A stretch of DNA of 64,000 bases from Rossellomorea orangium (GTDB lineage: Bacteria; Bacillota; Bacilli; Bacillales; Bacillaceae_B), in contig NZ_JAHWGH010000012.1 of the NCBI RefSeq assembly GCF_019334305.1, positions 310,001-374,000 on the forward strand, given 5' to 3'. Shown in pieces: positions 48,426 to 63,560 of the stretch (position 1 is its first letter; each line of letters begins with the position of its first letter). Below the pieces are notes generated by a model. That model did not search any database, had not been told where the DNA came from, and saw nothing but the letters and a program-made list of their open reading frames with translations. Position numbers and translations under genes: made by a program.

Positions 48426-50138
48426 ATGACGTTACCTTTAAAGAAAAAGCTGTACTTGTTGCTGGCATGGCTTGCCGTTGTGCCGGCCGGCTTGTATTTT
48501 ACATATCAATACTATCCCCCTGAAAATATTGCAGGAAATGAGTTGGAGTTCATTACATTAGTGGCCTTTGCCACTTTCATTCCCCTCATGCCCATCGTTA
48601 TTAACGGTGCCACCATATTTTTCATCCAGTGGGTGACTCTTGTTGGTTTCATTAAATATGGACTATTTATTGAAATCGTCCTCATGCAATTTTCTATCAT
48701 CCCATTGCTCATAAGACTAAGGGTGACGAAGAACGACTGGCATAGAATCCCTTTGAATTCATTGATGTTTTTTCTCGTTTCATGCATCAGTGGATTAATT
48801 TACTTTATGCTTGGCGGGGAAATTGCTGAGAGGGATCTGGGGCAGCTGATTATTCCGATCCTTTGCTATCAGGTTGTATCCATTATGATCAATCAGATTC
48901 TGCTCCTTTTGTACCATCATTATGTGGCTAATAATGATGTGCGCTTTTACAGTAAGGACTTCATATGGGATTTTACTGCGAATATGATCATGTTCCCTTT
49001 GTCTCTATCACTCTATTATTTAACATTTGAGCTCGGAGCCATTGCATCATTGCTGATCGGCGTCCCCTTCGTCAGTCTATCCATCATCTTGAAGCTTTAT
49101 AATTCTTCAGAAAAGATCAATGAATACCTCCAGAAAGCCGGGGAAATCGGTCACCAGTTAACCGAGAGCCTGAAAGTCACAGAAGTACTTGATATTTTCA
49201 TCGAGAAGATCATCGAGACCCTTCCTGTAGAGTATGCGTACATCCTTGATTGCCATGAAGAAGAATTAGTGCTTCTCCGCCGTGTTGAAAATGGAGAAAT
49301 GAAATCCAATAATCTGCGCCCCCTTAAGAAAAACCAGGGAATCAGCGGTGTGGTATGGGAGACGGGGAAGTCCGTCCTTTACACGTCCCGGTCTGAGTGG
49401 ACCGATATTGCAGAAGGCTACATGCCTGAAGATGTAGAAAGTGTACTATGTGTGCCCATCGTCAGAAGCCAGAAAGTGAGGGGCATCCTTCTCCTCGCTT
49501 CTTCCAAAAAGAAGGCATATGAGAAATTCCAACTGATGATCGTCGATATCCTTTGCTCCTATTTCGGAGTGGCGATCGCCAATGCAAGGCACCACGAACG
49601 TACAAAGAAAAACAGTGAACGATGCGCCCTTACAGGCCTTTACAATTACCGTTACTTCGAAGACCTCCTATCCATGGAATATAACAATCTTGAGGCAGGA
49701 AAAAGAAAAAATCTCTCACTTATCATGCTTGACCTGGACCACTTCAAAGTGATCAATGATAACTACGGACACCAGAGTGGAAACGAAATCCTGATTGAAC
49801 TTGCCGACCGCTTGCGCACGCTGATCGATTCCAAAGGGACGGTGGCGAGATACGGAGGGGAAGAATTTGTGATCCTCCTTCCGAACACGGAAAGGGAAGA
49901 GGCACTCCAAATCGCAGAGTATGTCAGGAGCACGATTGCCAATCAGCCATTCACACTGCATGATAGTTTGGACGAGTCCAATAAGCAGATGATGGTAAGG
50001 ATTACGGCGAGTATTGGAGTATCGACTGCTCCGGAAGATGCAGACGATACATTGGCGTTGATTCGTCATGCGGACCGTGCGCTTTATACGGGTGCGAAGC
50101 AGGCAGGGCGGAATCGGGTGGCGCAGTATGTGAAGTGA
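48426..50138 (+). CDS. membrane GAF-GGDEF diguanylate cyclase
   Basis: A 570-residue sensor enzyme predicted to make cyclic di-GMP. Residues 1 to about 220 form six or more membrane helices. A GAF domain is at about 240-390 and a GGDEF domain at about 400-568. The active-site loop is intact (RYGGEEF, GGEEF at 477-481), with DLDHFKVINDNYGHQSGNEIL as the substrate region. The inhibitory RxxD site five residues before GGEEF is absent (DSKGTVARY instead), so product feedback may be lacking. It lies between folC and the type IV pilus genes, which suggests that it regulates them. The ATG follows GGGGGATAG. Confidence 0.9.
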   Translation: MTLPLKKKLYLLLAWLAVVPAGLYFTYQYYPPENIAGNELEFITLVAFATFIPLMPIVINGATIFFIQWVTLVGFIKYGLFIEIVLMQFSIIPLLIRLRVTKNDWHRIPLNSLMFFLVSCISGLIYFMLGGEIAERDLGQLIIPILCYQVVSIMINQILLLLYHHYVANNDVRFYSKDFIWDFTANMIMFPLSLSLYYLTFELGAIASLLIGVPFVSLSIILKLYNSSEKINEYLQKAGEIGHQLTESLKVTEVLDIFIEKIIETLPVEYAYILDCHEEELVLLRRVENGEMKSNNLRPLKKNQGISGVVWETGKSVLYTSRSEWTDIAEGYMPEDVESVLCVPIVRSQKVRGILLLASSKKKAYEKFQLMIVDILCSYFGVAIANARHHERTKKNSERCALTGLYNYRYFEDLLSMEYNNLEAGKRKNLSLIMLDLDHFKVINDNYGHQSGNEILIELADRLRTLIDSKGTVARYGGEEFVILLPNTEREEALQIAEYVRSTIANQPFTLHDSLDESNKQMMVRITASIGVSTAPEDADDTLALIRHADRALYTGAKQAGRNRVAQYVK

Positions 50139-50231: not shown

Positions 50232-50240
50232 TGATATAAT
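50232..50240 (+). promoter_or_regulatory. extended -10 promoter of the VWA gene
   Basis: TGATATAAT at 50232-50240, an extended -10, with a weak -35. It rules out the upstream ATG at 50239 as start codon. Confidence 0.5.
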
Positions 50241-50274
50241 GAAAGTATTACAGGATGCCAAAAAGAGGGATATA

Positions 50275-53157
50275 ATGAGAATTCAACCAAAACTTCCGTT
50301 ACTAGTGTTCTTGATATTTGCATTCATTTTCCATTCAAGCAGTGCCTTTGCAAAGGGAAATGAAGACCTGAGAGTAGACTTTAATGCAACACCTTCACAA
50401 GAAGTAATTGTAAAACCTGTAGAAGGTAATGCAAAAGCGTCATTGGATTTCAATATTATCCCTTCAGGTGAAGTGAAAGAGACCAGCCGTCCACCGATTG
50501 ACGTCGTCTTTGTGTTTGATAAATCAGGTTCAATGAACAGTACGAATAATAAGCTGCAAAACGCAAAGAATGGTCTGACCAGCGCTGTCCAATTCTTTGA
50601 AAAGAATAAACAAAGAAATGACCGTTTTTCCCTCATTACCTTTTCTTCTGATGTTGAAACGATTGTTCCATTAAGCAATGACCTCGATGCCATCAAAACT
50701 TCTATGTTACATACCACCGCTAATGGAGGCACAAATTATACAGATCCTTTGCGTGCCGCGAAAAATATGCTGAAAAACTCTCCTAATGAAAAATATATTG
50801 TGTTTTTAACGGACGGACAGCCCATGATAGCTACAGCAATTGAGAAAGTTAAAAAAGAAGTATGTACAAGATACTGGTTGGTATTTTGCAGTGAAACAGG
50901 AGTGGTTGAAAGTGATGAACAAGTAGTCTATGATTATCAAAATCGTTACAGTTACAACAAGTGGCTTCATAAAATATATTCAACGGATAATAGTAAGCTG
51001 AAATCATTATTTATTCCTTCTGCTTTTTCAATGGACGGTACCTCTTTTAATCCCGGGTGGTACAATCCAGGAGATCTAGAAACGAACAGTCAACAAATGC
51101 AGGCCTTAATTAAACAAAAAGGTCTTGAAGTCTCCAAAGAATTATATAACGCTAAAATCACCATGCACACCCTTGGATACGGGGAAGGGGACCTGGATGA
51201 CCGATACCTACAAATGCTTGCACAGCAAACTTCGGGTAGCTTCATAAAGGCAAGCGAGGGAAGTGTTTCGGATGCGTTTGAAAAATTGGCGAATAAATTA
51301 AACTCAGTCAAATTAGATGGGGAAGTCGTCGTGCCATTGCCGGCAAACGTAACGGTTGACCGAAATCAGTATAAAGTGGTCAATAACTTTGTGTATTTGC
51401 CGTTTTCCACCGTTTATGAAGTGGGGCAAGGAGCACCGTCACCTATTACAGTGTCATTACCGGTAGAATTTACGACAAAGGGTACCTACACATTTAATAA
51501 CTTGAAAATACAATACAAATCAGCAGAAGAGACAGCCTGGAGATATACAAACACCCAATCCGTGACGATCCAGGTGAAGGACGATGCACCTGCATCCGTT
51601 ACAGGAAAACTTGAACTGAATAAGAATAAGCAGGAATTATTCAATTTAATTATTGAGCAAGGAGAAGATACAAACTCTTTTACAGGAAAATATCAGTTGG
51701 AATTTGGAGGTCTGGAAAATCCAAATGCTAAGGGAAATGTAACAGACATCATTATTTACCAGCCGCTACCTGAAGGGGTGGATATTGCGGATAACACCAA
51801 TGTTTCAATAGAGAGCGTTGATGGTCAACGAACGGCAGTCATGAAATTAACTCAAAAGGTTGGCTTTGATAAAGGGAAATTCTCGCAACCTACCCTTTCG
51901 GCGAATATGAAGATGAAGGCAGTGTGGGCCATCAACAATGTGAAAATGCCTCAGCCAAGGGTTTCTTATATCGATTCCAGATTTGGTACAAAAGTGATCA
52001 GTAATTTGACTCCTGACCAAAGTGAACTAAGTGCAAAAGTAAGGACCAGGAAGTATTACAGTCAAAAAGAGTATGCGTATGACGGATATTCTAATGGAGT
52101 GATCAAAAAAGTAAGGGTTTCGGGGCAGGGGGAAACGACTCTCGCAGTTCTAGAAGCTGGAGGAAGTAGCCGTTATCCGAATAAAGCCGTAAAGGAATTA
52201 GTTGCAGGTACTACCTGGCTATCGATCACCTATAAAGATGGATCCACTTCTGAGTTATCATTTATTCCGGATTTGACTGTAAAAGATACTGTCACTAAGA
52301 ATACGTTGGAGGATGGAGCTTCCATTTCGAACGAGGCAGAATTCAGCTTATCAAACGGTGTGCCAGGTCAAGATGTGACATATCAATACCGTATTCTGAA
52401 TGAGGATGAACCAATTGATGGATGGAAGAGCATTAACGTGGAAGAGTGGAAGACGCTCGATATGTTCGGCAAGAATGAAGTCCAGGTGAAAGCAAGCGGC
52501 GGGTTTGCACTCGATGACTACATCATCGGGAAATCCGTCTGGATCGAAGGGGACGACTTAATACGTGTGCCTTCTATTATTGAATTATATGTAGGCGAAA
52601 CGAAGACATTTGATATCGACGTGTTTCCATTTGGAAAGCCAAATAATAACTATCGTGTCAGTGTAACCCCTGGTGACGATTTACTCTTAAACTCGGTGTA
52701 TACACAAACCATTTCTTCCAAGGAGAATAAAATCACCGGAATATCTCCCGGAATCGATGTGGTTAAAGTAGAGACCAAAAATGGAAAGTACAAAAAATAT
52801 ATCCAGGTCATCGTAAAATCCAGGGTAGTAAAGCTCGAAAGTATGGATTTTGATCAATCCAAGTATACGTTGCTTCTTGAGGGAGACGACTTTGACATTG
52901 TTTCAAATTTAATCTTCAATCCTACCAATGCGACAAACCAAAACATCAAGAGTGTAACAGATACAGGAAATGGTGTCGTCGATATCGTAAAAGAAGACGG
53001 ACAATGGAAAGTGATCCCCGAGAAAAGTGGAGTGACAACCATCACTGTGACATCAGACGAAAACCCGGATATTAAAGCCAGGGCGATTTTCGAAGTTGTT
53101 TCAGAAGAAGACGAAGATCCTGATACGGAAGACGGCAGCATTGATGGCAGATGGTAA
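50275..53157 (+). CDS. secreted von Willebrand factor A domain protein, putative pilus-tip adhesin
   Basis: A 960-residue exported protein. The signal peptide ends at about SSAFA (residue 26). The VWA domain spans about 74-360. Its metal-ion-dependent adhesion site looks complete: FDKSGS (Asp82, Ser84, Ser86), Thr153 or Thr156 in GGTNYTDP and Asp180 in LTDGQP. An insert with two Cys (EVCTRYWLVFCSE) may hold a disulphide. The rest is beta-rich with Ig-like segments, the last being of BIG2 type (ITGISPGIDVVKVETKNG). There is no sorting signal or C-terminal membrane helix, so attachment must be by another partner. It is convergent with three pilin-like genes. Pseudomonas PilY1 is also a VWA protein beside such genes, so I infer a tip adhesin. 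The start is ATG 50275 behind AAGAGGG. Confidence 0.75.
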   Translation: MRIQPKLPLLVFLIFAFIFHSSSAFAKGNEDLRVDFNATPSQEVIVKPVEGNAKASLDFNIIPSGEVKETSRPPIDVVFVFDKSGSMNSTNNKLQNAKNGLTSAVQFFEKNKQRNDRFSLITFSSDVETIVPLSNDLDAIKTSMLHTTANGGTNYTDPLRAAKNMLKNSPNEKYIVFLTDGQPMIATAIEKVKKEVCTRYWLVFCSETGVVESDEQVVYDYQNRYSYNKWLHKIYSTDNSKLKSLFIPSAFSMDGTSFNPGWYNPGDLETNSQQMQALIKQKGLEVSKELYNAKITMHTLGYGEGDLDDRYLQMLAQQTSGSFIKASEGSVSDAFEKLANKLNSVKLDGEVVVPLPANVTVDRNQYKVVNNFVYLPFSTVYEVGQGAPSPITVSLPVEFTTKGTYTFNNLKIQYKSAEETAWRYTNTQSVTIQVKDDAPASVTGKLELNKNKQELFNLIIEQGEDTNSFTGKYQLEFGGLENPNAKGNVTDIIIYQPLPEGVDIADNTNVSIESVDGQRTAVMKLTQKVGFDKGKFSQPTLSANMKMKAVWAINNVKMPQPRVSYIDSRFGTKVISNLTPDQSELSAKVRTRKYYSQKEYAYDGYSNGVIKKVRVSGQGETTLAVLEAGGSSRYPNKAVKELVAGTTWLSITYKDGSTSELSFIPDLTVKDTVTKNTLEDGASISNEAEFSLSNGVPGQDVTYQYRILNEDEPIDGWKSINVEEWKTLDMFGKNEVQVKASGGFALDDYIIGKSVWIEGDDLIRVPSIIELYVGETKTFDIDVFPFGKPNNNYRVSVTPGDDLLLNSVYTQTISSKENKITGISPGIDVVKVETKNGKYKKYIQVIVKSRVVKLESMDFDQSKYTLLLEGDDFDIVSNLIFNPTNATNQNIKSVTDTGNGVVDIVKEDGQWKVIPEKSGVTTITVTSDENPDIKARAIFEVVSEEDEDPDTEDGSIDGRW

Positions 53158-53160
53158 AGG

Positions 53161-53198
53161 AAAAGCGAGTCCATGAGAAATCATGGGCTCGCTTTTTT
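53161..53198. terminator. bidirectional terminator with GAAA tetraloop
   Basis: 16-bp stem (53161-53176 with 53181-53196, one G-T), loop GAAA, A4 on one side and T6 on the other, between the convergent VWA and PilX-like genes. Confidence 0.88.
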
Positions 53199-55077
53199 AC
53201 TGGACGATGATTTCGTCACTTATGAGTGAGAGGGATTCTACCCTTGGCAAAGCCTCCAACTTTGAGAGAAGAACATCCCGATTATAATGGACGATAAATC
53301 GGGATAGCTTTTCTTCCTGATTTGAAAAAAGGTCAGTTTCAATTCGATCCATATCATCGACTTTTCCGCGAACGGCATTTATAGTCAGATTCCCTTTAGA
53401 AAAAACGCCGCCGTTCACATAGAAAAGAGAACCGACTCCATATAATGTTGCGTCACTATCCGTATATAAGAAGGCTTGTAATGGTTTAATGTTTTCAGAT
53501 GGATCTGGTAATAGGTCGGTCTCTTTCTTTTCATTTTCATCAGTATAATATTGAAATTCATTCATCCTCGTGACCAACAGTTCTCCTTTAGAAAGTAAAA
53601 TCAGCTGTCCGGAAGTATCTGAGCCTAAAGGATTTTTTATACCTGTGATGTTCAAGTTCGAGATGCTGGTCTTTCCCTTGGCATAGATGACAGAATCAAA
53701 TGCCATTTCATCATCTTCTTCACCTTGATCATTTGCGTCTCCTTGAATGGTTAAGTTCTTCCCTGAAAAAACGTTGCCTTCAATCCTTGAGGTAGAGTTC
53801 TGGGATTGAATCGTCATATTATCGAAACTGACAATATTCTCTTTCAGGCTGATGGGAGCATTCGCTTCAATGGACACTTTACCGGCTGCGACAATGTTTC
53901 CGATCGACATGTCCCCTGAGACATTTGAAATGGTTACATTTCCTGTAGAGATGATATTTCCGATATTCATCGCTGAATCTGCCAGAATGTTAACATCACC
54001 GTTGACGATGAGGTCAACTCCGCTATGAACGAGATTCTTTACGGTGATACTCCTATCGGCTTTTACTATACCTTGTACATTGGGATCCAATATGCCTTTC
54101 AACAGCGGCAGGAAGAGAGAACCGTCTGTTAGAAAGTTACGGGTGATCGTATTTCGTAAATTTACCTGAGTCAAGTTGTTATTGAGTGAAAGATCCAGGG
54201 AATTTAATACTTTTCCAACTTCATCATTGTACGTCTGGTCAAATGAAATGTCGGTAAATTGACTGTCCTGCTTTATGTTAGGTGCTGAGACGTGCGGGTA
54301 AAACTGATTTGTATCCACTAGGGATTTCATTTGCGCATAATTGTCTTTGTCATAGCTGGTATAAATATCCCCGATGATGGATGGGAAAGGTGCAGCCACT
54401 TTTTTATCCTTATGATTGGACAACTGATAATTGGCATCCTCTCTGATGTCTAGTGATTGAGCATATACATTGCCTACAAGATGAGGTGATCCGTTTAATT
54501 CCAGTAGTTCCCTGGCTCCCAGTGTGTATTTCAGGAAACTTGGGATAGGAGATAGGATAATACGCTTACGGACAATCTTTTCAACTTTTCCTTCCTCTGC
54601 ATCAGGGTTTTTTGTGTTGACGATAATCTCATAAACCCTTGTAAGGTTTGTATTGAGAAATTCCAAACCGAACGTGTGATACTGAAGATTATTTGCCCTC
54701 TCGCATTGGTCTCCCAGTAAATTAGACGCTCTATCACCGCTTACATCTACGATTGTAATACATTTGATAGAATCAGAAGATTGATAGGATGGGATGATGT
54801 CTGTTCTTATGAAGTCAGTCACTTTCGTATTGATATTACCTGTCGTCAATCCATCAATATCCAAAGGTTTCGTTGGTTGCAGCTGAGAGATAAGTTTCGC
54901 AGAAATTTCCTCAACTGCTTTTATTCCCTCGTATGTAATATCAATATCCGTTTCCCTTACTTCCGTTCGGTTGGCACCTCCTATTGTAGAGCTCATGATG
55001 GCCATTCCGATCGTTACCATGACCAGGGAGGTGATTAAAACGGTCAACAGGGCATTTCCTCTTTGATTCATAAACAT
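53197..55077 (-). CDS. PilX/GspK-like minor pilin with beta-solenoid passenger
   Basis: A 626-residue protein. The N-terminus MNQRGNALLTVLITSLVMVTIGMAIM (in part) has a class III-like RG cleavage site and a long hydrophobic helix, but Thr instead of Glu at +5, as in GspK and PilX proteins that sit at the tip. Residues to about 200 are mixed alpha-beta. From about 330 to 480 there are repeated rungs such as GDVNILADS, GNVTISNVS, GKVSIEANA, DNMTIQSQN and KNLTIQGDA, which suggest a right-handed beta-solenoid. Last of three minus-strand pilin-like genes. The start is ATG 55077 behind GGGAGGAAATC. I infer a tip pilin bearing a large surface domain. Confidence 0.7.
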   Translation of the reverse strand: MFMNQRGNALLTVLITSLVMVTIGMAIMSSTIGGANRTEVRETDIDITYEGIKAVEEISAKLISQLQPTKPLDIDGLTTGNINTKVTDFIRTDIIPSYQSSDSIKCITIVDVSGDRASNLLGDQCERANNLQYHTFGLEFLNTNLTRVYEIIVNTKNPDAEEGKVEKIVRKRIILSPIPSFLKYTLGARELLELNGSPHLVGNVYAQSLDIREDANYQLSNHKDKKVAAPFPSIIGDIYTSYDKDNYAQMKSLVDTNQFYPHVSAPNIKQDSQFTDISFDQTYNDEVGKVLNSLDLSLNNNLTQVNLRNTITRNFLTDGSLFLPLLKGILDPNVQGIVKADRSITVKNLVHSGVDLIVNGDVNILADSAMNIGNIISTGNVTISNVSGDMSIGNIVAAGKVSIEANAPISLKENIVSFDNMTIQSQNSTSRIEGNVFSGKNLTIQGDANDQGEEDDEMAFDSVIYAKGKTSISNLNITGIKNPLGSDTSGQLILLSKGELLVTRMNEFQYYTDENEKKETDLLPDPSENIKPLQAFLYTDSDATLYGVGSLFYVNGGVFSKGNLTINAVRGKVDDMDRIETDLFSNQEEKLSRFIVHYNRDVLLSKLEALPRVESLSLISDEIIVQ

Positions 55078-55092
55078 GTGATTTCCTCCCTT

Positions 55093-55680
55093 CTAAAAGC
55101 CGAAGCTGCTTTCTAATTGTAGTGTTTTATGAAAACGGGTATCGCTTACGTTGTAGGTTAATTGAATGATGGCATTTTCACAGGGATCGGATGAGCAGCT
55201 GGTAAAAACCTTTGAACCGGTAAAATCGGATGGAGTAGCAAGGATTTCCCCGTTGAAGCTCCATTGCTCTTTTCCGTCAACTTGAACAAGCTCGAGTGTC
55301 TGTTGATCATTTATGACTTCTGCATTTTCTACTTCATAGAAAGATTTGTCAGAGTAGGGAGTCACGTTTTTTTCACTGTCATTCACAAATGTAATGCAGC
55401 TTTCATTGGAGGATGAACATTCTTCTATTCTGTCGAAAGGATAGGAATAGAGATTCTTCATCACCATGGCTGAGACATAATCTGCATCCTCCCGTAATTG
55501 GGCATCGATTGAAACTTTTTCGTAGACTTTATAACCCGTTATGAAAGCTCCATATGTAACAGGGAGAAGAATGGCCGATATAGTAAGTGTAACCAACAAT
55601 TCAATCAGGGTGACACCCCTGTTATCGGATATCTTCGCTTTTGACTTTGCCATCCAATGTCGTACTGTATTCATGATCAT
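55093..55680 (-). CDS. PilW/GspJ-like minor pilin
   Basis: A 195-residue prepilin-like protein. The leader ends SDNRG, followed by VTLIELLVTLTISAILLP with Glu at +5, the full class III signal. The globular part has two Cys pairs (EECSSSNESC and TSCSSDPC), which may form disulphides outside the cell. It starts at ATG 55680 behind GAGGTGG and overlaps the preceding gene by 59 bases. Size and order point to the PilW/GspJ position of the tip complex. Confidence 0.75.
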   Translation of the reverse strand: MIMNTVRHWMAKSKAKISDNRGVTLIELLVTLTISAILLPVTYGAFITGYKVYEKVSIDAQLREDADYVSAMVMKNLYSYPFDRIEECSSSNESCITFVNDSEKNVTPYSDKSFYEVENAEVINDQQTLELVQVDGKEQWSFNGEILATPSDFTGSKVFTSCSSDPCENAIIQLTYNVSDTRFHKTLQLESSFGF

Positions 55681-56152
55681 CTATGGTCCACCTCACTTTG
55701 ACTGTTATTGGAATGTAGGAATTTAATTCTTCAGATGATGACACTTCTTCTGAAGAAATGGAGGCTTCATATTCCAGTCCGTTGACGGTAATGTTTTTTT
55801 TCTGGGGGCATGCCTGACTGATTTCTGATTCAGCGGCAGAGTTAGAGAAAGTAAGATAGCTATCATTACAGATAAATAATGCAAGAAAATCATCTTCGGG
55901 GGGATGCTGGCCGGTGTTCACTTCGTTAAAAAAATTTCTGATCTCCAGAAAATCCTGTTTCTCCATGAACATGAGAACATTTCTCGCAACGTTGACTCCC
56001 ACAGTCTTCTTTTGATTACTATTTGTATATGTACTCGATTGAAGAAAGAAGTTCATGAAGCTTAAAAGGACAATTCCGAGAATCGTTATGGATACCAAAA
56101 GTTCTATCAAAGTTAAGCCTCTATTATTTTTTAATATTTTTATCAGTTTCAC
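55622..56152 (-). CDS. PilV/GspI-like minor pilin
   Basis: About 176 residues. A short basic leader ends NNRG, followed by LTLIELLVSITILGIVLLSF with Glu at +5. The rest is a small soluble domain with two Cys (FICND and ACPQKK). GTG 56152 is preferred as start, behind AGGTG; a TTG at 56170 gives six more residues. First gene of the minus-strand pilin-like operon; it is divergent from the pilB operon with about 100 bases between. Confidence 0.75.
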   Translation of the reverse strand: MKLIKILKNNRGLTLIELLVSITILGIVLLSFMNFFLQSSTYTNSNQKKTVGVNVARNVLMFMEKQDFLEIRNFFNEVNTGQHPPEDDFLALFICNDSYLTFSNSAAESEISQACPQKKNITVNGLEYEASISSEEVSSSEELNSYIPITVKVRWTIDDHEYSTTLDGKVKSEDIR

Positions 56153-56266
56153 CCCAACACCTGCTTTCAAAATACCTGACTTTATTATACAATATCTAGT
56201 AGTCGAAACTTGTTAAAAAAAGTCTGATTTATAAGAAATATATCACAGGAAGGAGTTGAATATAAG

Positions 56267-57448
56267 ATGATTTACCTATTTTCGTTGTTGGCACTCATTC
56301 TTTTGTTACCTATTTTATATTTTGTTCCGATAGGCATCAGCAAGCAGGGGAAATTAATACTGGCCGGTATATCATTTGGTTTGACACTCCTTGGGATTGT
56401 TGCATCGAGTCAATACCCGATGTGGGCAATTGCAATTATGTTAATGGCTTTATTGGGGGTTGCTTCTTATATGATTGACCAACGATTCAGCGGGATGATG
56501 GTGGCTGCTGCAGGAAGTGAAGTGGAAGTGTATGAGGAACAGAAGTACGAAGTCTACCAACCTCAGACAGCTCATCCTGATATACATAGTGAGGAAGTCT
56601 TGGAAAACACGCCTGATAATGACATTCTTCCAGTTGAAGAAGTGCCAGAACAAATAGAGTCAATAATCGACCAAGAGGAAATACTCGAGATTGAGGAAGA
56701 TGAACCACCTATTGACGAGATTGAACTTATACATTCTCCCGTTGAAGAAATGAGCGAATCAGAAAGAGACACAGACATAATACCTGTTCCCGAAGATGAG
56801 AGTGAATGGTTTATTGAAAATACCAACGAAATGACGGGAAAAGTAGAAGTGATAGAAAACCAAAATGAAATCTTTAATGATGGGGATTTAAGTGAAATCG
56901 AAAGTATGATCGATGATACTAATTTGCAGGATGAACCAGAGGTGGAAGAAGAAGAGGCAGGCCTATTCGAGGAGGATATTCCAGAAGTAGGTGATGAATC
57001 TGTTACAGAAGAAGAATTGAGCGATGAAAAAGGTGACTCTGAACGTGAGGAAGTAAACGAGCAAACAGAGTCAACGTTAGAGATCGTAGAGACTGATATT
57101 AATACCGCGCTTAAAGAAGAGGATACTTATATTGATGAACTTCCAAATCGCCATAGGATCATGAGAGAAGTAATGAAGACAATGATCGAACAAATCTCAC
57201 TTTCTAGAAGTCTGTTAACGACAGATCAAATGGAAAACATGATTAAGCATTATTTACATCCCAGTCTACATGATCAGGATTACTATACATTTGCAAGGAT
57301 ATTAATGGATCATTACATTTCAACAGAGCAATATGTGGATTTGTGCATGTTCATTAAAGGAATTGAAGATAGGTTCATGGAATATCCTTACATCTTATTG
57401 GACATAGAACAAACCAAAGAATTTGCCTTGGAAAAACAGACGAAATAA
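56267..57448 (+). CDS. hypothetical acidic membrane protein at head of the pilB operon
   Basis: A 393-residue protein I do not recognise. Residues 1-70 hold two or three membrane helices. Residues about 85-300 are very acidic and low in complexity (many Glu, Asp, Ile and Val). The last 100 residues look folded and cytoplasmic (NRHRIMREVMKTMIEQIS, DYYTFARILMDHYIST). It starts behind GGAAGGAG, 24 bases before the PRC-barrel gene and upstream of pilB, so it is probably part of pilus assembly or its control. There is no match to PilM, PilN or PilO that I can see. Confidence 0.6.
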   Translation: MIYLFSLLALILLLPILYFVPIGISKQGKLILAGISFGLTLLGIVASSQYPMWAIAIMLMALLGVASYMIDQRFSGMMVAAAGSEVEVYEEQKYEVYQPQTAHPDIHSEEVLENTPDNDILPVEEVPEQIESIIDQEEILEIEEDEPPIDEIELIHSPVEEMSESERDTDIIPVPEDESEWFIENTNEMTGKVEVIENQNEIFNDGDLSEIESMIDDTNLQDEPEVEEEEAGLFEEDIPEVGDESVTEEELSDEKGDSEREEVNEQTESTLEIVETDINTALKEEDTYIDELPNRHRIMREVMKTMIEQISLSRSLLTTDQMENMIKHYLHPSLHDQDYYTFARILMDHYISTEQYVDLCMFIKGIEDRFMEYPYILLDIEQTKEFALEKQTK

Positions 57449-57471: not shown

Positions 57472-58209
57472 ATGAAGAAAAGTGCAGAGATGAAAACATT
57501 ACCGATTATTAGTATTAACGATGGAAGTGAAATAGGGAGAGTGAAATCCCTTGTTATAAATCCGGAAAAAGGATCCGTCGACTTTTTGACCATCGAACAT
57601 GAAGATTGGCAAGTGAGTGTCAAAGCAATTCCTTTCAAGAAAGTAGTAGGAATCGGGGAGTATGCCGTCACGGTAGAAAATGAGAATGCGGTCATCGACC
57701 TGAATGAAATTCCGATTGCCAACCAGCTGGTAAACAAAAAAATCAAAATCAATGATACTCGCGTAATGACCCGTAAAGGGCAAATGATCGGGAATATTCA
57801 TGAATTCTATGTGGATGATGAAACAGGCGCAATCGTTTCATTAGAGTTAGTTGCACAGGATAGTACATATTTCCTTGGAACTGAGCATGTACTGACCTTT
57901 GGAAAGGATATCATCATTGTAAACGAAGATGCAGTAGAATATTTTAAAGGTACGTTTGAACAACTGGAAAATCCTCATCCTGTATATGAAGAAGAGGTTG
58001 AAACAATCCAGACTCAACAGCATGGTTTGCAAACGATCAAATCGAAACAGACTGAATTATTGACTGGTAAAAGAGTGACAGAAGATATTTATAACCTGGA
58101 AGGGGATTTGTTGATTGCCAAAGGTTCTTCCTTAACAGAATCGGATATTAAAGCTGCTCAAGATGCCGGACCTTCTGTGTTTGTTGATTTAACGATGAAT
58201 ATAAAGTAG
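57472..58209 (+). CDS. PRC-barrel domain protein
   Basis: A 245-residue cytoplasmic protein with two PRC-barrel units: ISINDGSEIGRVKSLVINPE near the N-terminus and RVMTRKGQMIGNIHEFYVDD in the middle (in part). The C-terminal part is less clear and ends with an element like LEGDLLIAKGSSLTESDI. PRC-barrels bind other proteins or small ligands in RNA processing and envelope functions. Its place between an acidic membrane protein and a VanW-like protein suggests an adaptor for pilus assembly. Confidence 0.8.
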   Translation: MKKSAEMKTLPIISINDGSEIGRVKSLVINPEKGSVDFLTIEHEDWQVSVKAIPFKKVVGIGEYAVTVENENAVIDLNEIPIANQLVNKKIKINDTRVMTRKGQMIGNIHEFYVDDETGAIVSLELVAQDSTYFLGTEHVLTFGKDIIIVNEDAVEYFKGTFEQLENPHPVYEEEVETIQTQQHGLQTIKSKQTELLTGKRVTEDIYNLEGDLLIAKGSSLTESDIKAAQDAGPSVFVDLTMNIK

Positions 58210-58234: not shown

Positions 58235-59611
58235 GTGAAAAAAGGTCTGCTTGTAAAGTTGATGGCCGTATTATTCTGTTCCACGTTTTTTTTATATGGT
58301 TTTTCTCATCTAGGTGTTTTTGCTTATGAGACCTTCTTTGTTAAGTCCCTGCATTTATCGAAACATGCGGCACTTGCATCTATTAATCTGGGTGGAACAA
58401 ACAAAGAGGAAGCCTTAACAATACTGGACGAAAAAATTGATGAGTGGAAGAGAAATCAAAATATCATGATCGAGTTTGAAGGAGAGAGTGTAAGGCTTGA
58501 CCCCTCACTCCTTCAATTCCATCTCGAAGAAAGCATAGAAAAACTAGAAGGTAATGAAAATACGAGTTTAATGGTTTCATTGGAAGAAGAAGCATTGAAT
58601 TATTTCTTATCCAATCATTTCCCCGACTATAATGGCGATGACGTAAACCTGGCTTCTTTAAAGGAGTACATCCTTTCTTTAGCAGGAAGTCTCAACAATG
58701 GAGAAACCGTAAGCGTATTCGATTATTTATCCAGTAATGAATCTACACAAGTCATATTTGAGGCAGTTTCGAATGAATTAGAGGTAACACCAACCATCAA
58801 GAGCTTTATTGACAATCATCCCTCCATTCTCATAGAACCGAACTCCCAGTTTTCTTTCGCAGGCTTTCTGGAAACAGAAGGTTTTGTAGTTGAATCACAG
58901 GCTGATTTAAGTCCGATTGCATCATTACTCTATCAAATCACCTTACATTCCAATTTTTCCATCATTGAACGAAATATAAGTAAAGAGCTTCCAGATTATG
59001 TGACCCTTGGCTTTGAAGCGAAATTTAATCCGATGAATAACCAGGATTTTGTTATCACTAATCCGAACTCAACAGATTATGAGCTGAAGCTTGCTATTCA
59101 AGGTAATCGAATAAAGGCACTATTGCAGGGAATCCCTTTTCCTAATACATATAACGTTAGATTGTCAGATAAAGAAACCTTTCCTCCACGGGTGATTAAA
59201 CAGTTCAGTCCGTTTGTTGATAAGGGAAGCGTCGATATCCAACAGGAAGGAAAAGACGGGATCCTGATCAAGGTGTATAAGCAAAAACTGAGCACCTCAG
59301 GGGAAATACTCTCAGAAGAGCTGATCAATGAAGATTTTTATGCACCACGGCATAAGGTCATGGTTTATCCGCTGCAGGAAATGCAGGAAAACCCAAGTGG
59401 AACATATGATAACGTGCCAAACTCTGAGAATGGGGTTGAAACCCAGGACAGTGAAGGAAGCGAGAATACTTCCTCCATGGGTACTGAAGAGCAGGGTTCT
59501 ACCTCAGTGGATGGGGAAGACGAGGGGAACAGTCCGGAAGATAAAGAATCTGATACTGATTCAAGTTCTAAAGAATCAAATAAGACTCAAAAGAAAAAAG
59601 ATTATAAATAA
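58235..59611 (+). CDS. exported VanW/G5-like protein
   Basis: A 458-residue protein with an N-terminal signal anchor (residues 7-32). A segment like the VanW-associated peptidoglycan-binding domain follows (about 45-110). The VanW-like part (about 195-310) keeps LIEPNSQFSFAGFL and VITNPNSTDYELKLAIQGN, but the Cys-containing GGGxCQ core of typical VanW proteins is absent (ADLSPIASLLYQ). A G5-like beta segment runs about 325-380, then a Ser/Glu/Asp-rich disordered tail ending in KKK. It probably sits in the cell wall near the pilus base. The start is GTG 58235 behind GGAAGGAG. pilB follows in 22 bases. Confidence 0.65.
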   Translation: MKKGLLVKLMAVLFCSTFFLYGFSHLGVFAYETFFVKSLHLSKHAALASINLGGTNKEEALTILDEKIDEWKRNQNIMIEFEGESVRLDPSLLQFHLEESIEKLEGNENTSLMVSLEEEALNYFLSNHFPDYNGDDVNLASLKEYILSLAGSLNNGETVSVFDYLSSNESTQVIFEAVSNELEVTPTIKSFIDNHPSILIEPNSQFSFAGFLETEGFVVESQADLSPIASLLYQITLHSNFSIIERNISKELPDYVTLGFEAKFNPMNNQDFVITNPNSTDYELKLAIQGNRIKALLQGIPFPNTYNVRLSDKETFPPRVIKQFSPFVDKGSVDIQQEGKDGILIKVYKQKLSTSGEILSEELINEDFYAPRHKVMVYPLQEMQENPSGTYDNVPNSENGVETQDSEGSENTSSMGTEEQGSTSVDGEDEGNSPEDKESDTDSSSKESNKTQKKKDYK

Positions 59612-59633: not shown

Positions 59634-61295
59634 GTGGCCACGATAAGAAAGAGGTTAGGAGACCTTCTGGTTGACGCAGGAATCTTATCCGAATCACAAT
59701 TACAGGATACGTTGAAGGACAAGGCAAAAGGTCAGAAGCTTGGCGATGCACTGTTGCAAAGAGGATATATTACGGAACAGCAGTTGATAGAAGTACTGGA
59801 ATTTCAATTGGGAATCCCACACGTCAGCCTCTATCGATATCCCTTTGAAACGAACCTATTCCACTTGATTCCGAAAGAATCGGCGAAGAGAAACCTGATG
59901 ATCCCCCTCAAAAAAGAAGGAGATAAACTCTTTGTCGCCATGAGTGATCCTTTGGACTTTTACGCCATAGAAGATCTTCGCTTAGCGACAGGCTTTCAAA
60001 TTGAGACAGCCATTGCGACAAAGGATGATATTCTGAAAGTCATCAATAAGTTTTATGACTTAGAAGATGGATTTGAAGACCTTTTTCAAGAAAATAGAAA
60101 TCAAAATAAAGTAGAAGAGGAAACCGTGGTGGATTCCGATTCACCTATCGTTCGATTAGTAAACGGTATCCTCTCCAATGCGGTGACACAAAAAGCAAGT
60201 GACATACATATCGACCCGCAGGAAACCAAAGTTGTCATCCGTTACAGGGTTGACGGCATTCTGAGAACGGAAAGGAATCTCCCTAAGCACATGCAAAGTA
60301 TGTTGATTGCCAGGCTTAAAATCATGGCGAATCTTGATATTACCGAATTCAGGGTCCCACAGGACGGACGGATTAAGGTGAATATCGATTTTCATCCGAT
60401 TGATTTGCGTGTGTCGACGTTACCAACGGTCTATGGAGAGAAAATCGTCTTGAGGATTCTTGATTTAGGTTCAAGCCTGAATGACCTTGCCAAGCTTGGC
60501 TTCAACAAGGTGAATCATCAGCGATTCATGAAGATGATCCAGCAGCCCACAGGGATCGTCCTCATAACCGGACCGACGGGGTCGGGGAAATCATCCACCT
60601 TGTATGCTGCGCTAAATCACCTTAATAGTGAAGAAGTGAACATCATTACAATCGAGGATCCCGTTGAGTATCAGCTCGAAGGAATCAATCAAATCGGTGT
60701 GAATCAAAATGTCGGTTTGACTTTCGCAAAGGGGCTCAGGGCCATTCTGCGTCAAGACCCGAATATTATCATGGTCGGGGAAATCCGGGACAAGGAGACT
60801 GTTGAGGTATCCATCCGGGCTTCATTAACGGGACATCTCGTCCTTAGCACCATTCACACCAACGATTCAATCAGTACAGTGACAAGGCTTTTGGATATGG
60901 GGGTGGAGCCGTTCTTAGTTGCTTCATCACTAAGTGGAGTCGTGGCTCAACGTTTGATTCGAAGGGTCTGCCGTGACTGCAAGCAAGAGATGCCTGCAAC
61001 TAAGCGGGAAGTGGAGATCTTCTCTAAAAGAGGAATTAAAATCGAGACTATCACGAGGGGGAGGGGCTGCTCTTCCTGCAATATGACCGGTTACAAAGGC
61101 CGGATTGCGATTCATGAAGTCCTTGTCATGAATGATGAAATGAAGAAAGTCATCCTGAATAATGAACCTTTCTCCAAATTGAGGGAGCATGCGGTACGTA
61201 ACAAAACGATTTTCTTGGTCGATGACGGCTTGTTGAAGGTAAAGCAAGGGTTGACCACGACAGAAGAAGTATTACGAGTAGCGATTTCAGAGTAG
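59634..61295 (+). CDS. pilB: type IV pilus extension ATPase PilB (GspE family) with MshEN motif
   Basis: A 553-residue hexameric ATPase that powers pilus assembly. The N-terminal domain carries paired motifs RLGDLLVDAGILSESQL and KLGDALLQRGYITEQQL, which fit the MshEN c-di-GMP-binding pattern. Walker A is GPTGSGKSS, Walker B DPNIIMVGEIRD and the His box GHLVLSTIHTND. A zinc-type CRDC and CSSC pair follows. The start is GTG 59634. pilT follows without a gap. It is a longer type than ComGA of competence, which lacks the MshEN part. Confidence 0.95.
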   Translation: MATIRKRLGDLLVDAGILSESQLQDTLKDKAKGQKLGDALLQRGYITEQQLIEVLEFQLGIPHVSLYRYPFETNLFHLIPKESAKRNLMIPLKKEGDKLFVAMSDPLDFYAIEDLRLATGFQIETAIATKDDILKVINKFYDLEDGFEDLFQENRNQNKVEEETVVDSDSPIVRLVNGILSNAVTQKASDIHIDPQETKVVIRYRVDGILRTERNLPKHMQSMLIARLKIMANLDITEFRVPQDGRIKVNIDFHPIDLRVSTLPTVYGEKIVLRILDLGSSLNDLAKLGFNKVNHQRFMKMIQQPTGIVLITGPTGSGKSSTLYAALNHLNSEEVNIITIEDPVEYQLEGINQIGVNQNVGLTFAKGLRAILRQDPNIIMVGEIRDKETVEVSIRASLTGHLVLSTIHTNDSISTVTRLLDMGVEPFLVASSLSGVVAQRLIRRVCRDCKQEMPATKREVEIFSKRGIKIETITRGRGCSSCNMTGYKGRIAIHEVLVMNDEMKKVILNNEPFSKLREHAVRNKTIFLVDDGLLKVKQGLTTTEEVLRVAISE

Positions 61296-61304
61296 GTGAA
61301 AGCA

Positions 61305-62348
61305 GTGAAAGAAAAAATAGATTATCTTTTAAAGTCCGCTTATGATCTGGGGGCATCCGATATCCACCTGACAGTGGGATCGCCTCCTATCTTCCGCATA
61401 CATGGTGACTTAAAAAGATTCGGTAAAGAACAGTTAATGCCTGAAAGCACAGAATTGATGGCCAAAGCGATTATTTCTGAGCATATGTATCCTGCATTTG
61501 AAGAGGCAGGTGAATTGGATTTTTCCTACGGCATTCCAGGTGTGTCAAGATTCAGGGTGAATGCATTCAGGCAAAGATCATGCATCTCTTTAGCCATACG
61601 TGTCATCCCAACCTCCATCCCGACCATGGAAGAATTATTCCTTCCTCATGCGTTGACGGCGATAGCTGAAAAACCTCAAGGACTGTTCCTTGTGACGGGA
61701 CCTACTGGAAGTGGAAAGTCCACCACGCTGGCAAGCATTGTAGATTATATGAATCGAAAAATGAGGAAGCATATCATTACCCTCGAGGACCCGATTGAGT
61801 ATCTCCATAAGCATGGGGCATCCATCATTGATCAGCGTGAGGTTGGATTCGACACCAAATCATTTTCAAAAGGGTTGAGGAGTGCCTTGAGGCAGGACCC
61901 GGATATTGTCCTTGTTGGGGAGATGCGCGACCTGGAGACCATACATACCGCCATCACGGCAGCGGAGACGGGACATCTTGTGCTTGCCACCCTGCACACC
62001 TCTAGTGCACCGGCAACGATTGAAAGGATTGTGGACGTCTTCCCGCCGGAACAGCAATCGCAAATCCGAGTTCAGCTGGCATCCGTGCTCGTCGGGATCC
62101 TTTCTCAGCGCTTGTTTGCAACGGTGGACAAAAAAGGGAGGCGGGCAGCGACGGAACTCCTGATGAATAATGCGGCCATTGCCAATCTGATCCGTTCTGA
62201 GAAGGTGCATCAGATCCAGAATGTCATGCAGACGTCCAAAACGTCGGGGATGCATATCATGAGGGACAGTGTAATGAAGCTATATGAAAGTGGTATCATA
62301 TCAAAGGAAATGGCGTTTCCTTACAGCAGAGAGGAGATTCCTCAATAG
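61305..62348 (+). CDS. pilT: type IV pilus retraction ATPase PilT
   Basis: A 347-residue ATPase that takes pili down and so gives twitching or DNA uptake force. Walker A is GPTGSGKSTT, Walker B DPDIVLVGEMRD and the His box GHLVLATLHTSS. The C-terminal retraction motif AIRNLIRE appears as AIANLIRSEK. The start GTG 61305 lies behind AGGTG; GTG 61296 is an alternative. PilT is absent from the B. subtilis com system, which indicates a true retractable pilus here. Confidence 0.95.
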   Translation: MKEKIDYLLKSAYDLGASDIHLTVGSPPIFRIHGDLKRFGKEQLMPESTELMAKAIISEHMYPAFEEAGELDFSYGIPGVSRFRVNAFRQRSCISLAIRVIPTSIPTMEELFLPHALTAIAEKPQGLFLVTGPTGSGKSTTLASIVDYMNRKMRKHIITLEDPIEYLHKHGASIIDQREVGFDTKSFSKGLRSALRQDPDIVLVGEMRDLETIHTAITAAETGHLVLATLHTSSAPATIERIVDVFPPEQQSQIRVQLASVLVGILSQRLFATVDKKGRRAATELLMNNAAIANLIRSEKVHQIQNVMQTSKTSGMHIMRDSVMKLYESGIISKEMAFPYSREEIPQ

Positions 62349-63560
62349 ATGGGACGTTTTAAGTATACGGGACGAGATCCAAGAGGGAAGAAATCGGGTA
62401 TCATTACGGCATCTACCAAGAAAGATGCCCTCATTCAGTTGAAGAAACAGGAAGTCAGGGTCATTGACATCCTTGAGATGCCTGAAACGCTCATGACGAA
62501 GGATATCGCTATCGGAAACCCGGTGAAATTGCAGCATCTTGTTATTTTTCTGCGTCAGTTTGCCACATTACTGCAAGCCGGGGTAACGGTGGTGGATGCC
62601 ACTCATATTCTGGGCGAACAGACCGAGAGCAAAGCACTCGGTAAAGCACTGAAGGAAATCGAGGATGAGCTCAGGGATGGAAATCCCTTATCCGAAGCAT
62701 TCTCTAAACATAAGAAAATTTTCGAGCCGCTTCTGATCAACATGCTGATGGCCGGGGAAGCGTCGGGAAGCCTGGATGAGACATTGGAAGGGCTGGCCAT
62801 ACATTATGAAAAGCAACATATTACGAAACAGAAAATCATTTCAGCATTAGCTTATCCAATGGTTGTTGGAGTCATCGCAATTGGTGTCGTTATCTTCTTA
62901 TTAGCCGCTGTTGTGCCCACATTCGTTAACATGTTAACCGATTTCGGGGGAGAACTGCCCGCCATCACAAAGTTTGTCATTGCATCAAGTGAATTCACCC
63001 AGAAGTTCTGGTACATCATCATTTTGTTCTTTGTATTGATTGCTGTAGTCCTTGCTCTTTTACGAAAAGATAAAAAAACGAAATATTATTTGGATTATGC
63101 CGTCCTTCGGATACCGATTTTCGGGAAGATGCTGCAGAAAGCAGTTCTGGCCAGAATGACGAGGACGTTAAGCTCTTTATTCTCGAGCTCGGTTCCAATC
63201 CTGCAGGCGCTTGCCATCGTGGAGAAAGTCGTGGAAAATGAAGTGATTTCCCGTGTGATTGGAGAATCCCGGAGATCATTGGAAAAAGGAACTTCCCTTA
63301 CGGAGCCGATGAAACGGCATTGGGCTTTCCCGCCCTTGGTGACTCAGATGATTGCCATCGGGGAAGAGACGGGGTCCCTGGACTCGATGCTCGCAAAAGT
63401 TGCAGACTTCTATGAGAAGGAAGTGGAAAGTGCAACGGACCGCTTGAAATCATTGATCGAGCCGCTCATGATCGTCATGCTGGCAGGTCTCGTCGGTACC
63501 ATCGTCACCTCAATTCTCGTTCCAATGTTCGAAATCTTCAACAGTGTTCAGAACTATTAG
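62349..63560 (+). CDS. pilC: type IV pilus inner-membrane platform protein PilC
   Basis: A 403-residue GspF-family protein with two T2SSF domains of about 120 residues (FLRQFATLLQAGVTVVDA; MTRTLSSLFSSSVPILQA) and three membrane helices. It holds the PilB and PilT hexamers. It starts at ATG 62349 directly after the pilT stop. QMIAIGEETGSLDSML and the LIEPLMIVMLAGLVG end are standard. Confidence 0.95.
   Translation: MGRFKYTGRDPRGKKSGIITASTKKDALIQLKKQEVRVIDILEMPETLMTKDIAIGNPVKLQHLVIFLRQFATLLQAGVTVVDATHILGEQTESKALGKALKEIEDELRDGNPLSEAFSKHKKIFEPLLINMLMAGEASGSLDETLEGLAIHYEKQHITKQKIISALAYPMVVGVIAIGVVIFLLAAVVPTFVNMLTDFGGELPAITKFVIASSEFTQKFWYIIILFFVLIAVVLALLRKDKKTKYYLDYAVLRIPIFGKMLQKAVLARMTRTLSSLFSSSVPILQALAIVEKVVENEVISRVIGESRRSLEKGTSLTEPMKRHWAFPPLVTQMIAIGEETGSLDSMLAKVADFYEKEVESATDRLKSLIEPLMIVMLAGLVGTIVTSILVPMFEIFNSVQNY

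What the first reader, a model, noticed from the sequence alone, without database searches (positions are those of the whole stretch)
50275..56152. A Gram-positive counterpart of the PilV-PilW-PilX-PilY1 tip complex
Three minus-strand pilin-like genes occur in the order PilV/GspI-like, PilW/GspJ-like, PilX/GspK-like. The last lacks Glu at +5 exactly as GspK does. Convergent with them is a secreted VWA protein with a complete MIDAS and no anchor of its own. In Pseudomonas pilV-pilW-pilX-pilY1 code for a tip and priming complex with the VWA protein PilY1. The match in order, +5 residue and VWA partner is seen in the sequence; the joint function is inference.
Basis: partly seen in the sequence, partly recalled or inferred. 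Interest (0 to 1): 0.78.

Follow-up and report, generated by a model that had tools for sequence, protein, structure and literature searches.

The report
Swappable tip proteins on Gram-positive pili
In Bacillus-like bacteria a large secreted protein encoded beside three minor pilin genes looks like the tip of the pilus; its head differs between species while its last amino acid is nearly always tryptophan or tyrosine, which suggests a shared plug for loading different tips onto the same pilus.

Summary
Three minus-strand pilin-like genes (V, W, X; X without Glu5) face a secreted VWA protein with a full MIDAS and no anchor, inside a type IV pilus locus (pilB, pilT, pilC, pilA, pilD, pilMNO).

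The association is real: in 397 genomes of the same order, 51 of 51 with the VWA family have it beside X and convergent (28 genera).

The reading as a PilV-W-X-PilY1 counterpart is supported as analogy, not homology: no PilY1 propeller, and X seems to carry a beta-helix. The VWA protein is one of several occupants of that place. DUF5057-headed proteins take it in 19 of 80 order loci read and in one genome of the window's genus; traces of an ice-binding-like head were seen in other orders. The last residue stays: W in 59 of 59 VWA-type proteins, W or Y in 21 of 21 others, against 39 of 997 in background. On the X tree the head type changes 8-9 times, the last residue 4 times.

Best model: a monoderm pilus tip adhesin that docks on V-W-X by its C-terminus. 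Docking and tip location are inferred; predicted structures were too poor to test them.

The parts
50239..53157 (+). Secreted VWA protein, 972 aa (alternative ATG at 50275); proposed non-pilin tip protein
50500..50877 (+). VWA domain (residues 88-213) with MIDAS D94/S96/S98/T168/D192
   Evidence: nearest solved VWA domains by profile: inter-alpha-trypsin inhibitor H4, S. sanguinis PilB, Mfa5
53101..53154 (+). Acidic C-terminal tail ending ..SIDGRW; terminal W is the most conserved column of the 55 VWA-type ORFs aligned
53197..55077 (-). X: PilX/GspK-like minor pilin (626 aa), Thr at +5, C-terminal part read as beta-helix
53377..54072 (-). Part of X with repeating short strands, read as a beta-helix (residues 336-567; pLDDT 59-83 only at 341-480)
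   Evidence: sub-threshold Bactofilin match at residues 187-217
55093..55680 (-). W: PilW/GspJ-position minor pilin, Glu5 present
55622..56170 (-). V: PilV/GspI-like minor pilin, Glu5 present (inner start 56152 possible)
48426..50138 (+). GAF-GGDEF diguanylate cyclase upstream of the tip gene
56267..57448 (+). Membrane protein with long acidic stretch (called tmE here), first gene after the cassette
57472..58209 (+). PRC-barrel protein, found in most loci of this kind
58235..59611 (+). G5/VanW-like protein, found in most loci of this kind
59634..61295 (+). pilB with MshEN and c-di-GMP motif (59.2 bits, cut-off 38)
61296..62348 (+). pilT (retraction ATPase)
   Evidence: named by likeness and place, no family search of its own
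62349..63560 (+). pilC (platform); pilA, pilD, pilM, pilN, pilO follow beyond the window (L009)
   Evidence: named by likeness and place

Best explanation
The four genes code for a monoderm type IV pilus initiation and tip complex. V and W are minor pilins with Glu5; X, which lacks Glu5 and so can only sit on top, caps them and carries a beta-helix. The large secreted protein encoded convergently is exported by its signal peptide, binds the V-W-X complex by its extreme C-terminus (a flexible acidic/Gly linker ending in an aromatic residue, mostly R-W, K-W or R-Y, with a free carboxylate), and is pushed out on the growing pilus so that its head ends up at the tip. The head is exchangeable (VWA with MIDAS here, DUF5057 in other genomes, probably an ice-binding-like domain in other orders); the tail is what the pilus recognises. 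Shown: gene content, order, linkage, missing Glu5, head exchange, constancy of the last residue. Inferred: contact, tip location, priming, adhesion.
For: Linkage: 51 of 51 VWA genomes in the order have it convergent and adjacent to X (gaps 42-1603 bp between aligned parts). A script on fetched loci put the VWA ORF in that slot in 42 of the 43 VWA genomes outside the genus, the 43rd having only a partial X. pilB lies in the same stretch in 40 of the 40 order loci. Tail: 55 of 55 VWA-type slot ORFs end in W and this is the most conserved column at 29% median identity (a DxSxS motif is found in 50 of 55; of the 5 without, at least two are frames that lack their 5' part); 4 further VWA-type ORFs also end in W: 59 of 59. 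21 of 21 alternative occupants end in W (7) or Y (14); DUF5057 is over its cut-off in 20 of the 21 and Big_2 in 21. Of 26 loci cut from the 92 hit genomes of the class search, 25 show a slot ORF ending in W or Y; 4 of those genomes were already in the order set, and in 7 of the 25 a shorter ORF that does not end so lies between it and X. Controls: 6 W and 39 W-or-Y among 997 other ORFs of at least 200 aa; 6 of 6 non-slot VWA proteins of the genus end in K; 0 of 8 closed non-slot Big_2 proteins of the genus end in an aromatic residue. X tree, 68 rows with a partner: VWA-or-other changes 8 times (IQ-TREE quick) or 9 (FastTree), last residue 4 times in both, once among the alternative type alone. 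Heads unrelated: 20 of 21 alternative heads have no VWA-type hit. Precedents in passages read: modelled strand addition of a C-terminal stretch of PilY1 to PilX in M. xanthus (PMC11046646; PMC13190605); TcpF and CofJ dock to tip minor pilins by an N-terminal aromatic peptide (PMC9565799).
Against: No contact, localisation or phenotype data. Structure predictions were poor (X mean pLDDT 44, VWA 34) and no complex could be predicted. X has no significant match in the PDB (best E 0.028). 65 of 116 X genomes have no VWA hit; 16 of the 80 order loci read have X but no recognised partner; 14 of 36 genomes of the genus lack the cassette at this locus, all 14 with pilB. So the tip protein is not needed for every pilus of this kind. 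One large secreted-looking protein near X (L251, 1260 aa, 583 bp away, in the X clade without partner) ends in K. VWA-type proteins are related to one another, so 59 of 59 is not 59 independent events, and the Big_2 stalks of the two types are alike at Ig level, so part of the shared tail may be common descent. All VWA-type ends are W, so the last residue is tied to head type on one side.
Confidence: 0.62

Rival explanations
1. The slot protein is a pilus-dependent secreted effector, carried out on the pilus tip by its C-terminal tag and then released, like TcpF or CofJ, and not a permanent tip adhesin.
For: A short terminal aromatic peptide is how TcpF/CofJ are carried (PMC9565799 passages); no anchor was found in 55 of 55 VWA-type and 21 of 21 alternative ORFs.
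Against: Adhesin-like make-up (VWA with MIDAS, Ig domains), a monoderm needs no pilus to cross an outer membrane, and a signal peptide-like start is found in 52 of 55 VWA-type ORFs.
Confidence: 0.15
2. The tail is recognised by something other than V-W-X (for example the G5/VanW-like, PRC or acidic membrane protein, or a wall component), and the protein is a wall- or membrane-retained partner of the pilus base.
For: tmE, PRC and G5 genes accompany V-W-X in most loci read.
Against: In the genus, genomes that lack the cassette keep G5 and mostly tmE, while the tip gene goes together with X-W-V; the last residue follows the X tree, though trees of tmE, PRC and G5 were not made.
Confidence: 0.15
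3. V, W and X form a type II secretion-like pseudopilus and the slot protein is its substrate.
For: I-J-K-like minor pilins with a cap lacking Glu5 are shared by type II systems (PMC9934059 and PMC10191384 passages).
Against: No outer membrane; the locus carries pilT, pilM, pilN, pilO and a major pilin as type IV pilus loci do.
Confidence: 0.05

Closest known systems
PilY1/PilC with PilV-PilW-PilX (FimU) tip complex of diderm type IVa pili
   Same: Large secreted non-pilin protein encoded beside minor pilins; VWA head in some members; variable N-terminal part; C-terminal end modelled to dock on PilX (passages of PMC11046646 and PMC13190605).
   Different: No PF05567 propeller, X seems to carry a beta-helix, no FimU-like fourth pilin identified, gene convergent with the pilin genes, Ig-like stalk in many members. 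PMC9934059 states that PilC/PilY1 is absent in monoderms (passage).
Streptococcus sanguinis PilA-PilB-PilC modular tip pilins
   Same: Monoderm; VWA domain at the modelled pilus tip; one pilin lacks Glu5 (passages of PMC9934059); PilB VWA is among the nearest solved domains by profile (7b7p, E 9e-7).
   Different: There the VWA is grafted onto a pilin; here it is a separate secreted protein without a pilin leader.
TcpF-TcpB and CofJ-CofB of type IVb pili
   Same: Secreted protein docked to tip minor pilin by a terminal peptide with an essential aromatic residue (passages of PMC9565799).
   Different: N-terminal peptide there, C-terminal here; different pilus class and pilins.
Caldicellulosiruptor tapirins
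   Same: Beta-helix cellulose adhesins (one passage of PMC7142884); first but insignificant fold matches of X (E 0.028 and 0.18).
   Different: Match is weak, on a low-confidence model; a link of tapirins to type IV pilus loci is recalled and not checked.

Membership tests
PilY1/PilC family | C-terminal beta-propeller PF05567 | tested here: not met
   Not among Pfam hits to E<=1 of the window protein, nor to E<=0.01 in the two other VWA-type proteins scanned or in the 21 alternative ones
PilY1/PilC family | Encoded next to minor pilin genes of a type IV pilus | tested here: met
   51 of 51 next to X in the order
PilY1/PilC family | Variable head, constant C-terminal docking end | tested here: inconclusive
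   Variable head and constant last residue shown; docking not tested
PilY1/PilC family | Located at pilus tip, needed for priming | not testable with these tools
   Needs experiment
Core minor pilins H-I-J-K (FimU, PilV, PilW, PilX) | Order I-J-K with K lacking Glu5 | tested here: met
   Glu5 in V 77/77 and W 84/84, in X 0/84, one a gap
Core minor pilins H-I-J-K (FimU, PilV, PilW, PilX) | Recognised family models for I, J, K | tested here: inconclusive
   V: TIGR02523 at 34 bits, below cut-off; W and X: no specific model
Core minor pilins H-I-J-K (FimU, PilV, PilW, PilX) | Fourth pilin H/FimU | tested here: inconclusive
   Not in the cassette; one more pilin gene follows pilO but is interrupted in this genome
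Core minor pilins H-I-J-K (FimU, PilV, PilW, PilX) | K with large alpha-helical insertion (GspK; recalled) | tested here: inconclusive
   Model shows repeating strands instead, but confidence is low overall
S. sanguinis PilB-type modular pilins | VWA fused to a pilin leader | tested here: not met
   Separate ORF with an ordinary signal peptide-like start
Type IVb pilus secretion signal (TcpF/CofJ) | Aromatic docking peptide at the N-terminus | tested here: not met
   The conserved aromatic residue is at the C-terminus; a conserved N-terminal peptide was not looked for

The most novel reading that the evidence does not exclude
Type IV pili of Bacillus-like monoderms have a general C-terminal tip-loading signal: a secreted protein that ends in a flexible linker plus an aromatic residue with free carboxylate (mostly R/K-W or R/K-Y) is captured by the V-W-X minor pilin complex. 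This lets lineages exchange whole tip heads (VWA, DUF5057, ice-binding-like) while keeping the pilus: a plug-and-socket arrangement convergent on both PilY1-PilX and TcpF-TcpB.
Probability: 0.5. Interest if true: 0.88.

Novelty: new variant of a known kind. Interest (0 to 1): 0.75.

Why it matters
A passage of PMC9934059 says that the non-pilin tip adhesin PilY1 is absent in monoderms, and a 2026 review names non-pilin tip proteins only from diderms in the passages shown (PMC13234629). A conserved tip slot in Gram-positive type IV pili would fill that gap, suggest a function for DUF5057 (no paper of the held library contains the name), and offer a one-residue test of how a pilus picks its tip. 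It also predicts which unknown secreted proteins are pilus tips from their place and last residue.

Tried and rejected
PilY1 homology: rejected, no PF05567. Bactofilin identity of X: rejected, sub-threshold. Chance occurrence of the tail: D-G-[R/S]-W-stop has 5 matches in the own genome, of which only the tip gene is a long ORF (the other four lie in open stretches of 7-23 codons). Tail as a property of all VWA or all Big_2 proteins: not borne out in the 6 and 8 checked. Family-level searches gave only the genus. Slot-specific residues of X (S180, F181, L500, R504, E507, F508, L533 and others) are a lead only, because X proteins without partner are mostly one clade. The VWA model (pLDDT 34) was not used. 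Viral fold matches of X: one row at E 2e-4, but with an rmsd of 41 angstroms; disregarded. X protein in plasmids: no match. A promoter and terminator scan gave nothing clearly above shuffles and was not used. A published report of this slot was not found with the searches; that is not proof of absence.

Rows dropped before counts: the 21 alternative tip proteins are slot ORFs of at least 750 aa in loci that I assigned by reading (L073, L200-L213, L242-L246, L258). All 21 were scanned: DUF5057 in 20; L201 (790 aa) has Big_2 but neither DUF5057 nor VWA. Large ORFs of loci classed as without partner (L249 947 aa ending in I, among flagellar genes; L251 1260 aa ending in K) were left out; L251 may be a real exception. 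L228 has only a partial X and is missing from the X tree. L087 is a broken copy counted by its intact 3' part. 37 of the 64 genomes outside the genus with X but without a VWA hit were read; 27 were not. Of the 92 genomes hit in the class search, 26 loci were looked at.

Full report
What is there. The window lies in a genome whose nearest named relatives are Rossellomorea aquimaris, R. arthrocnemi and Bacillus sp. NTK074B. Between folC and the mreB region lies a full type IV pilus locus: GGDEF, VWA gene (+), X, W, V (-), then an acidic membrane protein, a PRC-barrel protein, a G5/VanW-like protein, pilB, pilT, pilC, pilA, pilD, pilM, pilN, pilO (names from pilT on by likeness and place).

Within the genus. 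Of 36 genomes, 19 have both X and the VWA protein, always paired; one more (G014) has X-W-V with a DUF5057 protein and an ankyrin protein in place of the VWA; 34 have pilB. Of the remaining 16, 14 were read at the pil locus and lack the whole cassette there, GGDEF being followed by the next accessory gene (13, one); the other two have no pilB hit. Remote V-W-X-like triads with a shorter X were found in 11 of those 14 (three were not fetched) and also in two cassette-bearing genomes, G004 and G032. In the 13 remote loci, one search lists the ORFs of at least 250 aa ending in W or Y within 6.5 kb: several are the shorter X itself (ending in Y), the rest look unrelated to the slot (one of 420 aa ending in W lies 5.6 kb away in L094) and were not followed. 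So the cassette comes and goes as a unit and the pilus genes exist without it.

Across the order. With profiles of X (A2) and VWA (A1), 116 of 397 genomes have X at E<=1e-6 (56 of 135 genera) and 51 have the VWA at E<=1e-15 (28 genera). In 51 of 51 the VWA gene is adjacent to X and convergent. I read 80 order loci outside the genus: all 43 VWA genomes and 37 of 64 with X only. Classes: 44 VWA-type (one of them below the search threshold, one with a partial X), 20 with another large secreted protein, 16 with no recognised partner. Of the 21 proteins of the other type (20 plus G014), 20 have DUF5057 and 21 have Big_2. An ORF of about 250-320 aa lies between that gene and X in 16 of 21 and on its far side in 3; 12 of 12 of these scanned are ankyrin-repeat proteins. 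In other orders, 2 of 9 partial slot proteins scanned begin with the end of an ice-binding-like adhesive domain (PF20597, below cut-off on cut fragments), and 21 of 25 are not found by the VWA model.

The tail. Each VWA-type ORF seen ends in W: 55 of 55 in slots and 4 more. In an alignment of the 55 (median pairwise identity 29%) it is the most conserved column; a DxSxS motif is found in 50. The other type ends in W (7) or Y (14), 21 of 21. Of 26 loci of the class search, 25 show a slot ORF ending in W or Y, commonly DRY; in 7 of them a shorter ORF lies in between; one locus shows no ORF; 4 of the 25 are genomes already counted. The last residue is preceded mostly by R, K, E or L and by a linker rich in D, G, N and S. 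Controls: 6 W and 39 W-or-Y in 997 other ORFs; 6 of 6 other VWA proteins of the genus end in K; 8 of 8 closed Big_2 proteins outside the slot end in K, N, Q or S, a ninth runs off its stretch.

Heads change, the tail stays. On the X tree the partner type (VWA or other, 68 rows) changes 8 times by IQ-TREE quick and 9 by FastTree; the last residue changes 4 times in both, and once if only the other type is counted. With rows without partner included the type changes 10-11 times, 5-6 of them forced by well-supported branches. DUF5057 and VWA heads show no similarity in 20 of 21 cases, while the stalks are alike at the level of Ig domains. This is what a fixed socket with exchangeable plugs would leave, but shared descent of the stalk can explain part of it.

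How it most likely works. X lacks Glu5 and would cap the filament as K does in H-I-J-K complexes (PMC9934059, PMC10191384; passages). The slot protein would bind this cap by its C-terminus and be lifted out at the tip. Two published cases make a terminal peptide plausible: modelled strand addition of a C-terminal stretch of PilY1 to PilX in Myxococcus (PMC11046646, passages), and the N-terminal aromatic peptide of TcpF and CofJ in their tip pilins (PMC9565799, passages). GGDEF next door and the c-di-GMP motif of PilB suggest control by c-di-GMP; this is inference. Structure prediction was weak: X shows an N-terminal helix, further helices and strands as in a pilin, and repeating short strands read as a beta-helix (residues 341-480 at pLDDT 59-83 by blocks of ten); the rest is unreliable; the VWA model is unusable. 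No complex could be predicted.

Known or new. It is not PilY1 (no propeller), not a modular pilin, and not a type IVb effector by the place of its peptide; it may work like the first and third. A passage in PMC9934059 says PilY1 is absent in monoderms. The listings of the searches named in Tried and rejected did not show a report of this slot or its tail; the 2011 survey of Gram-positive pili (passages and one section) and the Paenibacillus thiaminolyticus paper (passages) do not mention it where I looked. I rate it a new variant of a known kind, with a tail motif that would be new if the docking is confirmed.

Noticed in passing
L009 5260-5708 (G000:C3:377260-377708, beyond the window): A second pilin gene after pilO is interrupted by an in-frame stop after about 40 codons; several relatives have an open frame of 146 aa at the like place.
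   Followed up: partly
L085 (G017) and L087 (G020): Cassette decay: a transposase-like gene (by eye) lies between the tip gene and X in G017; the tip gene is split in G020.
   Followed up: no
L197, L238, L239, L240: Two or three tandem VWA-type tip genes in one locus, each ending in W (a further 575-aa ORF in L238 too), as if several tips could be loaded.
   Followed up: partly
L200, L202-L206, L208-L213, L242-L246, L258, L073: An ankyrin-repeat protein of about 250-320 aa sits with the DUF5057 tip gene (12 of 12 scanned have ankyrin repeats). Its N-terminus looks lipoprotein- or membrane-like by eye; function unknown.
   Followed up: partly
L104 (G024:C2:185000-204000): A second, different pil cluster (pilT, pilB, pilC and several pilins) follows flagellar-type and single-strand-binding protein genes (by eye).
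   Followed up: no
L105 (G024:C1:2205000-2224000): folC, pilB and, by their short frames, pilT and pilC are broken into pieces; decay or poor assembly.
   Followed up: no
G000:C12:88453 (L090): A lone pilin gene lies inside what looks like an exopolysaccharide/sugar-nucleotide cluster.
   Followed up: no
window 48426-50138 and 59634-61295: GGDEF protein upstream of the tip gene and a c-di-GMP motif in PilB point to c-di-GMP control.
   Followed up: no
L093, L095, L096, L098, L101, L103: The shorter X of remote minor-pilin triads without tip gene ends in Y itself.
   Followed up: no
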